Shown here: positions 2,972 to 11,777 of the stretch, piece by piece
How positions within the stretch are numbered: position 1 is the stretch's first letter
How the letters are laid out: the number at the start of each line of letters is the position of its first letter
Assembly (NCBI GenBank): GCA_023659935.1
Contig: JAGXOK010000002.1
Coordinates: 30,633-66,683, forward strand
Origin: Candidatus Aenigmarchaeota archaeon LH_S6
GTDB lineage: Archaea > Aenigmatarchaeota > Aenigmatarchaeia > QMZS01
Direction of reading: 5' to 3'
Length of the DNA: 36,051 nt
Notes under the pieces: model-generated
The model's database searches: none
Seen by the model: only the letters and a program-made list of their open reading frames with translations
What the model was told of the DNA's origin: nothing
Made by a program: the position numbers and the translations under genes

Positions 2972-4675
2972 CTAAATAAAACCATTTTCTTCTAAATGCT
3001 TAACTACTTTATTTGTGCTTCCTTCAATACTTTCTTGGTCTGTTCTCAGTTCAATCTCAGGATTTTGGGGAGACTCATAGGGATCGGAAACACCAGTAAA
3101 GTTTAGGATTTCTCCTCTTCTTGCCTTCTGATACAATCCTTTTTTGTCTCTTTTTTCGCAAATTCCAAGGGGAGCGTTACAAAATACTTCTATAAAATTG
3201 TTGGTTTCTCTCCGAGCCATATCCCTGATTTTTCTATAAGGGGAGATGAAAGAGCAGATAGTTCCAATATTATTTTTACTCAAAAGACGAGCAACCATAG
3301 TTATCCTTCTGATATTCTCGTCTCTATCTTCTTTGGAAAATCCCAAATCCTTGCTTAATGACTGACGAACAATATCTCCATCTAATCTTTCAAGCTTCAA
3401 TCCTTTCTCTTTCAAAATTTGGTGAACTCTGTTGCCAACAGTGGTCTTACCAGCTTGGCTGAGGCCAGTGAACCACAAAACAAACCCTTTCTGATCCACT
3501 TGGTTTTTGTACATTTCATCAACTAAAGCATTTTTGCTTTGAGATAAGAAATTGTAAACTGCTGGTCTGATAACATATTCAGGAGGGGTGTTTTTGATTT
3601 GAATGTGTTCTCTAAGCTTTGTTCCGCTAAAAGAAACCCCTTCTTCTTTGGGGCATTCTGGCTGGAATACATGAATTTTCTTTTTTGGCCAGTAAACAAC
3701 TTCTGGATATTTTAAAATCTCAATACCAATCTCCTCTTTTTTAAAATTATTAAAGATTTTTTGAGCGTCAAAAGGACCGTAGTAATCCCCACATCCAGCA
3801 TGGTCCCTGCCTACAATAAAGTGGGAACAGCCAAAATTCTTTCTAATCAAAGCGTGGAAAACTGCCTCTCTTGGTCCAGCATATCTCATTTTTAAAGGTA
3901 AAATTCCTAAAAATATTTTATCTTTTTGATAATACTGGTTAATTAGAATCTCATAACTTATTAAAATATACTCATCTTTAAAATCTCTAATTTTTTTCTC
4001 TCCAATCACCGGTTGAATAAATAAACCATCTGTTTCTTTAAGAGCCTGTTTTTGTAAAAATTCATGTCCTACGTGAGGAACATTTCTGGTTTGAAAAGCA
4101 ACCACAGTTTCCCATCCTCTTTCTCTAAATATTTTTCTTGTTTGTCGAGGAGTAAAATTATACTCTGGAAAAGGTTCTCGAGAATCATCCAGAATTTTAA
4201 CTTCCCCTCCTATCAAAAATTTACCCATCTTATAAACCTCACTGACCCCTGGATGATCTTTATCTTTAGTACCAAACATATTCTTAGCCAAAGAATGTTT
4301 ATCATAAGGAAAAATTTGGATGTTTTCTAAGTGAGCAACTGGTTTTTTTCCATCTATTAAAAGAACTTCTTTTTCATTTTTAATTCTTTTATAATCTTTT
4401 GCTGAAATATCCAAGACGATTGGGATTGGCCAAATCACTCCATTGGCGAGTCGCATCTCAGAAACCACTCTATTAAAATCATCTTTTTTTAGGAAACCAG
4501 TCAGGGGAGAGTAAACTCCATAGGCAATATTTTTTACATCCTTAACCTGTTCTATATCCAACTTTATTTTTTTAAAACTCTCAATATTCTCTAAAATATC
4601 CCTCTTTTCTTGAGGAGATACAGTTTTGTCTATTAATTTTCTACCATGGGCAGAGATCATAATATTTATAGCCAA
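2972..4675 (-). CDS. Bifunctional sulfate adenylyltransferase / adenylylsulfate kinase (PAPS synthesis)
   Basis: QTRNVPHVGHE and GRDHAGCG motifs of ATP sulfurylase; APS kinase P-loop GLSQAGKTT, DGDIVRQSLSKDLGFSKEDRDENIRR, FISPYR. True start probably MISAHGRKL near 4660. Confidence 0.93.
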   Translation of the reverse strand: MAINIMISAHGRKLIDKTVSPQEKRDILENIESFKKIKLDIEQVKDVKNIAYGVYSPLTGFLKKDDFNRVVSEMRLANGVIWPIPIVLDISAKDYKRIKNEKEVLLIDGKKPVAHLENIQIFPYDKHSLAKNMFGTKDKDHPGVSEVYKMGKFLIGGEVKILDDSREPFPEYNFTPRQTRKIFRERGWETVVAFQTRNVPHVGHEFLQKQALKETDGLFIQPVIGEKKIRDFKDEYILISYEILINQYYQKDKIFLGILPLKMRYAGPREAVFHALIRKNFGCSHFIVGRDHAGCGDYYGPFDAQKIFNNFKKEEIGIEILKYPEVVYWPKKKIHVFQPECPKEEGVSFSGTKLREHIQIKNTPPEYVIRPAVYNFLSQSKNALVDEMYKNQVDQKGFVLWFTGLSQAGKTTVGNRVHQILKEKGLKLERLDGDIVRQSLSKDLGFSKEDRDENIRRITMVARLLSKNNIGTICSFISPYRKIRDMARRETNNFIEVFCNAPLGICEKRDKKGLYQKARRGEILNFTGVSDPYESPQNPEIELRTDQESIEGSTNKVVKHLEENGFI

Positions 4676-9703: not shown

Positions 9704-10107
9704 TGTATAAAGAATTATCCCGTGTAAAGCATAAAAGAGAAGATGGGTGGCTTTCTGAATTAATCTCAATGAATTACAGAGATGATCCTTTTAATTGTTT
9801 ACACTCCTATTTGGTTTCAATAAATCCCAGAAAAACACGCGCTGAGCATTACCATAAAAGAAAAGAGGAATGGCTCGCAATCACTTCTGGAAAAATTATT
9901 TTACTTTTAGAAGATGTAAATTCAAAGAAAAAAGAGAGAATATTCCTTGATTCAAATTCTGAAGATTATAAAATAATTTATATTCCCCCTCTTGTTGCTC
10001 ATACAATAAAAAATTTTGGCAGTACTAAAGCAAGCTTAGTTGTATTTAGTAAGACCCCAGAAGATTTAGAGGATACAATTCCTTATAAAACAGAAGAAGA
10101 AAAATGA
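9700..10107 (+). CDS. Cupin-fold protein of sugar-biosynthesis type
   Basis: 135 aa; INPRKTRAEHYHKRKEEWLAITSGKIILLLED...YIPPLVAHTIKNFG; overlaps the upstream gene by 4 nt. Confidence 0.7.
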   Translation: MMYKELSRVKHKREDGWLSELISMNYRDDPFNCLHSYLVSINPRKTRAEHYHKRKEEWLAITSGKIILLLEDVNSKKKERIFLDSNSEDYKIIYIPPLVAHTIKNFGSTKASLVVFSKTPEDLEDTIPYKTEEEK

Positions 10108-10238
10108 TACCCTATGGACATCAATGGGTTGACGAAGAAGATATAGAAGAAGTAATCAAAGTTTTGAAGAGTGATTGGGTCACCCAGGGACTAAAAATAC
10201 AAGAATTTGAGAATGCTCTATGCGAATATGTAGGTTGT
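10104..10238 (+). pseudogene. 5' fragment of a PseC-like (DegT/DnrJ/EryC1) aminotransferase
   Basis: MIPYGHQWVDEEDIEEVIKVLKSDWVTQGLKIQEFENALCEYVGC, then runs into IS110 sequence. Confidence 0.8.
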
Positions 10239-10726
10239 ACATTAAGAGGAATAGAAAAACTATCTTTAGATAATTATCTGTTCTTAATAGAATAGGTAAA
10301 CTCAAGAATAGCAAAGGTCGATGACGAAATAAGAGAAGCTAGCAGATCCTTAAATGATGCAGAATTGTTGACAACAATTTCTGGAATTGGATATTATTCT
10401 GCATTGCTAATTTTGTCGGAGATTTTAGACATAAAGAGATTCAAATCAGCGAAGAGGTTTGTTCTTATGCAGGATTGGTTCCATCGATTTATCAGTCTGG
10501 AGATAAACTAAGGACAGAAAGAATCACAAAGCAAGGAAGTAAGTGGTTGAGATGGATTCTGATTCAGGCAAGTCATAAGTCAGTACTTAGTGATGGGTTT
10601 TTAAGAGACTTCCATGACAGGATAGTAAACAGGAGAGGAAAGAACATTGCAACAGTTGCTGTTGCGAGAAAGTTGTTAATCTATATTTACAAGATATTGG
10701 AGACAAAAGTTTCTTATAGACACTAA
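10239..10726 (+). pseudogene. IS110-family transposase 2, 5'-truncated and frameshifted
   Basis: TLRGIEKLSLDNYLFLIE(TAG)VNSRIAKVDDEI...AELLTTISGIGYYSALLILSEILDIKRFKSA, frameshift near 10455, then CSYAGLVPSIYQSGDKLRTERITKQGSKWLRWILIQASHKSV... Confidence 0.85.
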
Positions 10727-10729
10727 AAA

Positions 10730-10822
10730 AGGGTTTGTCTTTTTCATAGTCATTAAAGGGTAAACCCTATAAAAGGCGACGACCCCCACTGGAACTTAGA
10801 TTCCGAATAGATGAATGTCGCC
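10730..10822 (+). ncRNA. Putative bridge-RNA segment of IS110 element 2 (downstream of the transposase)
   Basis: Stem AGGGTTT (10730-10736)/AAACCCT (10762-10768); stem GGCGAC (10775-10780)/GTCGCC (10817-10822) enclosing GGAA-CTTAGA-TTCC (10791-10804). The CTTAGA loop is also present in the element 1 candidate. Confidence 0.5.
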
Positions 10823-10868
10823 ATCCACATTTAAATTTAAAAACAAGTTAATATAGGTGTTTTCATAG

Positions 10869-11777
10869 ATGAATAAAATTCTTATTACAGGTGGTAGTGG
10901 GCTTCTTGGAAGTAATATTGCAAAATTAGCTTCTTCGAATTTTAAAGTTTATACAACATATAATAAAAATAGAGTTAGTATGAAAGATGTTTATTTTTTT
11001 CAAATTGACATTACAAAAAAAGAACAACTCATTAAAATAGAACAGATAAAGCCAGAGCTTATAATCCATTGCGCAGCTCTAACAAATGTGGGTTACTGCG
11101 AAGAACATCCAACTGAGGCATATAACCAAAATGTTCTTGCAAGCATTAATATAGCAGAGATAGCTAAAAAAATTGGTGCGTATCTAATTCATATCTCAAC
11201 AGATAGTGTTTTTGATGGAACAAAGGGTAATTATAGAGAGGGTGACATACCAAGCCCAATCAATATATATGGAAGGACAAAGTTGGAAGCTGAACAAAGA
11301 GTGTCATCAATCCACACTCATTCGTGTATTATTCGAACGAATATTTATGGCTGGAACAAAAGAGATAAATTTAGCTTAGCCGAATGGATGTTAAATAAAT
11401 TAACAAATAATGAGGAACTACCTGCATTAAAAGATATTTATTTTTCACCTATATTAGTAAATTATCTTGTAGATATATTGTTTAAATTACAAGAGAAAAA
11501 AAATGAAGGTATTATTCATATTGCAGGGAGCGAGACATGTACTAAATTAGAATTTGCTTACATGATATCAGAAGTATTTAATTTTGATAAGAGTCTAATA
11601 AAACCTGTTAGTATCCATGAATTAGGACTAAAAGCACCAAGAGGATTGGATACGTCCTTAAATGTATCAAAAGCAGAAAAGATTCTAAAAAAACATTTAC
11701 CCAGGGTTAAAGAAGGATTAAAAAAAATGAAGAAATTGTATGAAGAAGGATATGTTGAGGAGTTGAAACATGGCTGA
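10869..11777 (+). CDS. RmlD-like SDR (dTDP-4-dehydrorhamnose reductase family)
   Basis: MNKILITGGSGLLGSNIAKLA, HISTDSVFDGTKGNYREGD, YGRTKLEAEQ. Confidence 0.8.
   Translation: MNKILITGGSGLLGSNIAKLASSNFKVYTTYNKNRVSMKDVYFFQIDITKKEQLIKIEQIKPELIIHCAALTNVGYCEEHPTEAYNQNVLASINIAEIAKKIGAYLIHISTDSVFDGTKGNYREGDIPSPINIYGRTKLEAEQRVSSIHTHSCIIRTNIYGWNKRDKFSLAEWMLNKLTNNEELPALKDIYFSPILVNYLVDILFKLQEKKNEGIIHIAGSETCTKLEFAYMISEVFNFDKSLIKPVSIHELGLKAPRGLDTSLNVSKAEKILKKHLPRVKEGLKKMKKLYEEGYVEELKHG

What the first reader, a model, noticed from the sequence alone, without database searches (positions are those of the whole stretch)
10730..10874. Second bridge-RNA-like segment whose loop arm exactly matches the flanking rmlD start site
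Downstream of the decayed IS110 transposase 2 are stems AGGGTTT/AAACCCT (10730-10768) and GGCGAC/GTCGCC (10775-10822). The latter encloses GGAA-CTTAGA-TTCC; CTTAGA is also the apical loop of hairpin A in element 1. The 3' arm of the second loop reads ATAGATGAAT (10807-10816), identical over 10 nt to 10865-10874, which spans the start codon of the RmlD-like gene (ATG at 10869). The first loop contains TTTTCATAG (10741-10749), identical to 10860-10868. The two arms together tile the junction TTTTCATAGATGAAT, overlapping on ATAG, as expected if one loop reads the element end and the other the target. The bridge RNA would be 3' of the transposase here, as in the IS1111-type arrangement, but 5' in element 1.
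Basis: partly seen in the sequence, partly recalled or inferred. Interest (0 to 1): 0.82.

Follow-up and report, generated by a model that had tools for sequence, protein, structure and literature searches.

The report
Remnant of an RNA-guided jumping gene
A dead jumping gene of the IS1111 kind in an archaeal genome still carries the guide-RNA segment that once read its own right end, the two-base crossover point and the first bases of the gene it landed in front of; the kind is known, but its relatives show the pairing rules clearly.

Summary
The sequence observation is correct. This is the right end of a decayed IS1111-type element (left end and half the transposase lost) inserted exactly at the rmlD start codon. 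The second hairpin is a donor-binding loop: its 3' arm GAATAGATGAAT reads the element's right end (ATAGA), the core dinucleotide (TG of rmlD's ATG) and two target bases (AA); the last T matches by chance. In relatives from archaea and bacteria the guide arms track the flanks (left target 51/60, right target 60/65, right end 27/28, core 24/24 and 28/28; each p<=5e-5). Bases just past the core match the other DNA partner (26 elements; loop A p=5e-6, loop B p=3e-4), a mirror image of IS621 handshake guides. Loop B stems covary; polarity is the published IS1111 order; IS5075 looks the same. The element is ordinary; the IS1111 handshake rule may be new.

The parts
10104..10239 (+). First ~45 codons of a DegT/DnrJ/EryC1 aminotransferase gene, cut off by the deletion that also removed the element's left half
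   Evidence: PF01041 match over residues 10-44 of the frame; three-frame reading
10240..10726 (+). Decayed C-terminal part of an IS1111-type transposase (in-frame stop, frameshift near 10430-10460)
   Evidence: Alignment to element 1 transposase in two frames; PF02371 31.8 bits for 10475-10726; 51-53% identity to L011
10730..10768 (+). Remnant of loop A (target-binding loop), apical hairpin deleted; 5' arm GTCTTTTTCAT 10737-10747, 3' arm AGTCATTAAAG 10748-10758
   Evidence: Alignment with intact loop A of L011 shows a 13-nt gap at the hairpin
10775..10822 (+). Loop B (donor-binding loop) with stem GGCGAC/GTCGCC and apical hairpin GGAA-CTTAGA-TTCC
   Evidence: Fold; compensatory changes across 8 relatives: 17 double-changed cells vs 4.8 shuffled, covariation score 0.600 vs 0.166, 0/500
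10781..10790 (+). Loop B 5' arm, expected guide for the (lost) left end
   Evidence: In L011, L019, L020, L101 the reverse complement of this arm contains the left-end extension (ATTAC, ATGGT); not testable in element 2
10805..10816 (+). Loop B 3' arm GA-ATAGA-TG-AA-T: right-end guide (10807-10811), core (10812-10813), handshake-type bases for the target (10814-10815), last T by chance
   Evidence: Table and shuffle tests over relatives
10828..10850 (+). Promoter-like TTTAAATTTAAAAACAA inside the right end, same as upstream of other genes of this genome
   Evidence: 23-nt match at C11 upstream of an rps12-like ORF and a similar stretch at C7
10851..10866 (+). Right subterminal inverted repeat (...AGGTGTTTTCAT); AGGTG also a plausible ribosome-binding site for rmlD
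   Evidence: L011/L126 have TTAAGGAGGTTTTCAT / ATGAAAACCTCCTTAA, 16 bp perfect
10867..10869 (+). 3-bp right-end extension AGA; its last A is the A of rmlD's ATG
   Evidence: Same 3-bp extension in relatives with both ends
10870..10871 (+). Core dinucleotide TG (junction with target)
   Evidence: In the relatives found by their inverted repeats the same dinucleotide stands at both junctions and in both 3' arms
10872..11777 (+). Right flank: rmlD-like gene (start codon 10869-10871 completed at the junction)
   Evidence: PF04321 209.8 bits
1703..2969 (+). Element 1, a second IS1111-type element with bRNA at the 5' end: cores TA 1703-1704 and 2968-2969, sTIRs 1710-1724 / 2950-2964, loop A 1762-1815, loop B 1820-1871, transposase 1905-2741 with premature stop

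Best explanation
The segment is the right end of a dead IS1111-type insertion sequence that had inserted, guided by its own bridge RNA (seekRNA), exactly at the start codon of rmlD. When intact, the RNA from the 3' noncoding region had two loops. Loop A paired with the target: 3' arm = left flank + core, 5' arm = complement of core + right flank. Loop B paired with the donor: 3' arm = right end ATANN + core, 5' arm = complement of the left-end extension. In each loop the two bases of the 3' arm just past the core match the other DNA partner (loop A the left end, loop B the right flank), so that they can pair with the incoming strand after exchange, as the handshake guides of IS621 do. That is why the loop B arm of element 2 reads straight across the junction between element and rmlD. 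A later deletion removed the left end, half the transposase and most of an upstream aminotransferase gene, and loop A lost its apical hairpin, so the element is immobile; its right end now supplies a promoter-like sequence, a possible ribosome-binding site and the A of rmlD's ATG. Shown: anatomy, guide/flank covariation, stems, boundaries in relatives. Inferred: RNA expression, order of strand exchange, promoter activity.
For: Closest relative L011/L126 has the same loops, guide GGATAGATGAAT, 16-bp sTIRs and right junction TTTTCAT-AGA-TG-AAAGC. Over 12-14 elements the guides match their own flanks far better than exchanged flanks: LF 51/60 (18.3 shuffled), core 24/24, RF 60/65 (22.5), RE 27/28 (17.9), core 28/28; all p<=5e-5. 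Over 26 elements loop B post-core nt1-2 vs RF 31/52 (18.7 shuffled, p=3e-4), loop A post-core vs LE 35/36 (26.2, p=5e-6), while the same bases against their own DNA are at chance (16/46, 11/36). Three copies of one element in one genome share the right end but have different RF. Removing the L021 element with one TG core restores a continuous IS66 transposase ORF, PF03050 across the junction; removing element 1 restores an operon junction. IS5075/IS4321 show the same arms: RE ATAGA-TT, guide GGATAGA-TT. Polarity as published for IS1111.
Against: Element 2's own left end and left flank are gone, so its target guide and sTIR cannot be tested directly. The handshake-type match in loop B is absent in E1, L012, L021, the second HyVt-387 element, L159 and L177, so it is a tendency, not a rule; its significance rests mainly on the first position (17/26, p=3e-4; second position p=0.07). 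One relative (L027) does not show the same core at both ends. No RNA data exist. L011 and L126 are ends of two contigs and may come from two copies.
Confidence: 0.92

Rival explanations
1. The loop B arm is a pure target guide and the flanking ATAGATGAAT is target DNA.
For: The match includes the rmlD start codon, and the bases after the core do follow the right flank across elements.
Against: ATA is invariant next to the sTIR in all elements and copies; the right flank is read by the loop A 5' arm (60/65), the left flank by the loop A 3' arm; the loop B 5' arm fits the left end.
Confidence: 0.04
2. Chance or shared translation-start signals: TTTTCATAGATGAAT is just a start-site context that recurs.
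For: AT-rich genome; a 10-mer match has probability about 0.014; one of the ten bases (last T) is at chance level in the family.
Against: Guide-flank covariation in many elements of different phyla with different cores (TG, AG, CG, TA, GG, TT).
Confidence: 0.02
3. The loop is a donor guide only and the two matching target bases (AA) in element 2 are coincidental, i.e. IS1111-type RNAs have no handshake pairing.
For: About a quarter of elements show no match at these two positions; position 2 alone is p=0.07.
Against: Joint p=3e-4 for loop B and 5e-6 for loop A, chance level against the cognate DNA; experimentally known in IS621 (PMC11208158).
Confidence: 0.2

Closest known systems
IS1111 group / seekRNA elements (IS5075, IS4321, ISEc11, ISPa11, ISKpn4; PMC11187229)
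   Same: 3' noncoding region, sTIR, 3-bp right extension, guide order (5' arm pairs top strand, 3' arm pairs bottom strand); IS5075/IS4321 examined here have the same donor arm GGATAGA-core and a target arm complementary to core + right flank
   Different: Element 2 is a truncated, immobile copy in an archaeal draft genome; different guides and core (TG); left end lost
IS621 (IS110 group) bridge RNA and its handshake guides (PMC11208160, PMC11208158)
   Same: Two bispecific loops, core dinucleotide in the guides, bases beyond the core matching the non-cognate DNA
   Different: Mirror-image polarity: IS621 5' arm = top strand and bRNA in the left end; here 3' arm = top strand and bRNA in the right end; long sTIRs
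IS1111-type elements with upstream NCR (ISMtsp17, named in PMC11187229)
   Same: Element 1 of this window: sTIR, IS1111 polarity, noncoding region 5' of the transposase
   Different: Archaeal lineage, grouped with L159 in the tree

Membership tests
IS1111 group | DEDD transposase with DEDD_Tnp_IS110 and Transposase_20 domains | tested here: inconclusive
   Element 2 keeps only the C-terminal PF02371 part; complete relatives align over the full length with invariant D7, E54, D92, D95 and S252
IS1111 group | Subterminal inverted repeats of 7-17 bp | tested here: inconclusive
   Left end of element 2 is deleted; closest relative has 16 bp perfect, other relatives about 8-18 bp
IS1111 group | Long noncoding region downstream of tnp encoding the guide RNA | tested here: met
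   10727-10866; loop B stems covary across relatives
IS1111 group | 3-bp right extension and a longer left extension beyond the sTIR | tested here: met
   Right side AGA in element 2; left side only in relatives: core + 5 bp = 7 bp
IS1111 group | Guide order: complement of top strand in the 5' arm, top-strand sequence in the 3' arm | tested here: met
   Arms in relatives and loop B 3' arm of element 2 against PMC11187229
IS1111 group | RNA copurifies with the transposase and directs transposition | not testable with these tools
   Needs experiment
IS110 group (IS621 type) | bRNA in the left end; 5' arms = top strand; sTIR only 2-3 bp | tested here: not met
   bRNA in the right end, opposite polarity, long sTIRs in relatives
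IS621-like handshake guides | Bases next to the core guide match the non-cognate DNA | tested here: met
   Statistically in the family, and AA in element 2; biochemistry not tested

The most novel reading that the evidence does not exclude
IS1111-type bridge RNAs use handshake guides in mirror image of IS621: in both loops the two bases of the 3' arm beyond the core match the other DNA partner (left end for the target loop, right flank for the donor loop), whether the RNA is encoded 5' or 3' of the transposase. Not found stated for IS1111 in the papers searched (most subscription papers and all preprints are not held).
Probability: 0.7. Interest if true: 0.5.

Novelty: new member of a known kind. 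Interest (0 to 1): 0.38.

Why it matters
The element itself is ordinary, but the comparison it led to gives an explicit four-guide code for IS1111-type RNAs: target left = loop A 3' arm, target right = complement of loop A 5' arm, donor right end = loop B 3' arm, donor left end = complement of loop B 5' arm, the core in both 3' arms, plus two handshake bases. The seekRNA paper described target matches; a full donor and handshake code would make IS1111-type recombinases easier to understand and reprogram, and it holds in archaea as well as bacteria.

Tried and rejected
Rfam: no match. Viral contigs: no relative. Order, class and phylum of the host: few relatives. Empty rmlD site: closest homologues in the order are only ~31% identical, no site found. 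Sigma-70 promoter scan uninformative in an archaeon. Reading loop B as the target loop, and IS621 polarity, rejected by lining up arms and flanks. The loop A / junction TTTTCATAG match rejected as accidental. A looser automatic guide finder gave false hits and was replaced by one that requires sTIR, the same core at both ends and the donor 7-mer, without using the handshake positions. Because of that selection the core agreement is counted only on the hand-curated set found by inverted repeats. The transposase tree does not resolve whether 5' placement of the RNA arose once or more. Joined flanks of L016 were not used because flanks of multi-copy elements in MAGs may be chimeric.

Full report
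Observation. The 10-mer ATAGATGAAT is rare: 3 in the window against 0.32 expected, 10 in the 729-kb assembly against 3 for the reversed control. A 10-nt match between segment and junction has p about 0.014 in a Markov model. On its own that would be suggestive only; the relatives decide.

What surrounds it. The window lies in a draft archaeal genome (G000; its order holds only 11 genomes here). Upstream, the first 45 codons of a DegT/DnrJ aminotransferase run directly into a transposase remnant that aligns to the C-terminal half of an IS110-superfamily transposase in two frames with an in-frame stop; PF02371 is still recognised. The left end and N-terminal half are gone. Downstream, after the noncoding segment, rmlD starts at 10869.

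Relatives. The nearest, L011 (51-53% identity), has two loops 3' of the transposase and the right junction GGAGGTTTTCAT-AGA-TG-AAAGCC; its second loop carries GGATAGATGAAT in the same place. The end of another contig of the same genome (L126) carries the missing left half, with a 16-bp perfect inverted repeat ATGAAAACCTCCTTAA. A scan of GTDB genomes gave 25 further loci, among them three copies of one element in a Thermoplasmatales MAG with the same right end and different right flanks, and elements in Nanoarchaeota, Hadesarchaea, Asgard archaea, Elusimicrobia, Desulfocarbo and a deltaproteobacterial MAG; more came.

Boundaries. In elements with both ends the subterminal repeat runs outward to ATG (left) and CAT (right); beyond it lie a 3-bp right extension and a left extension of 5 bp, and the same dinucleotide stands at both junctions (TG, AG, CG, TA) in the elements found by inverted repeats alone, with L027 as an exception. 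Taking the element out with one copy of that dinucleotide restores a 222-aa IS66 transposase frame in L021 and, for element 1 of this window, an operon junction TTTAG-TTT-ATGAG. For element 2 this places the core at 10870-10871: the TG of rmlD's ATG, the A being the last base of the element's extension AGA.

Guides. The arms of the loops were lined up with the flanks. Loop A 3' arm = left flank + core; loop A 5' arm = reverse complement of core + right flank; loop B 3' arm = right end ATANN + core; loop B 5' arm resembles the reverse complement of the left extension (exact in L011 and L019). Against exchange of flanks among elements: 51/60 vs 18.3, 24/24 vs 15.3, 60/65 vs 22.5, 27/28 vs 17.9, 28/28 vs 18.0, all p<=5e-5. 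Loop B stems show 17 compensatory cells against 4.8 in shuffles. IS5075 and IS4321 show the same layout.

Beyond the core. The two bases that follow the core in each 3' arm do not match the DNA of that loop but that of the other: loop A to the left end 35/36 (26.2 shuffled, p=5e-6), loop B to the right flank 31/52 (18.7, p=3e-4); against the cognate DNA they are at chance; the third base is at chance. Detection of guides in the enlarged set did not use these positions. This is what the handshake guides of IS621 do (PMC11208158), on the opposite strand, in line with the reversed order reported for IS1111 seekRNAs (PMC11187229). In element 2 this accounts for AA; the tenth base, T, is a chance match.

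The first loop. In L011 it is intact; in element 2 the apical hairpin is missing (13-nt gap), so the 5' arm GTCTTTTTCAT (complement of ATGAAAAAGAC, the expected right-flank guide, agreeing with TGAA of rmlD) abuts the 3' arm AGTCA. TTTTCATAG therefore arises from the fusion, and its identity with the right-end repeat TTTTCAT is accidental.

Consequence for rmlD. The right end contains TTTAAATTTAAAAACAA, found also upstream of other genes of this genome, and AGGTG nine bases before the start codon. The remnant probably serves as promoter and ribosome-binding site for rmlD; this is inference.

Judgement. An IS1111-type bridge-RNA remnant, known kind. What could be new is the handshake rule in the IS1111 group and its independence of whether the RNA lies 5' (element 1 and seven others) or 3' of the transposase.

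Noticed in passing
1703-2969: Element 1 is an IS1111-type element (15-bp near-perfect sTIR, core TA, IS1111 guide polarity) with its bridge RNA 5' of the transposase; its excision restores an operon junction at the start codon of a sulfotransferase-like gene, so both elements of the window sit at start codons.
   Followed up: yes
10828-10850; L006 1480-1520; L007 around 1501-1542: Promoter-like TTTAAATTTAAAAACAA in the right ends of elements 1 and 2 and of L009 resembles stretches upstream of ordinary genes of this genome, among them an rps12-like gene.
   Followed up: partly
L035, L129, L159, L165, L177, L178, L181: sTIR-bearing elements with the bridge RNA 5' of the transposase but the same guide polarity as the 3' ones: polarity seems to follow the sTIR type rather than the position of the RNA.
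   Followed up: partly
L016, L015 (around the transposase stop): In the HyVt-387 element loop A overlaps the end of the transposase gene; the stop codon lies in the apical loop.
   Followed up: no
10240: The aminotransferase start is fused in frame to the transposase remnant, ending at a TAG.
   Followed up: no
L018 (match 3001-3474): Truncated Woesearchaeotal copy whose donor guide (ATAGA) no longer fits its right end (ATACA).
   Followed up: no
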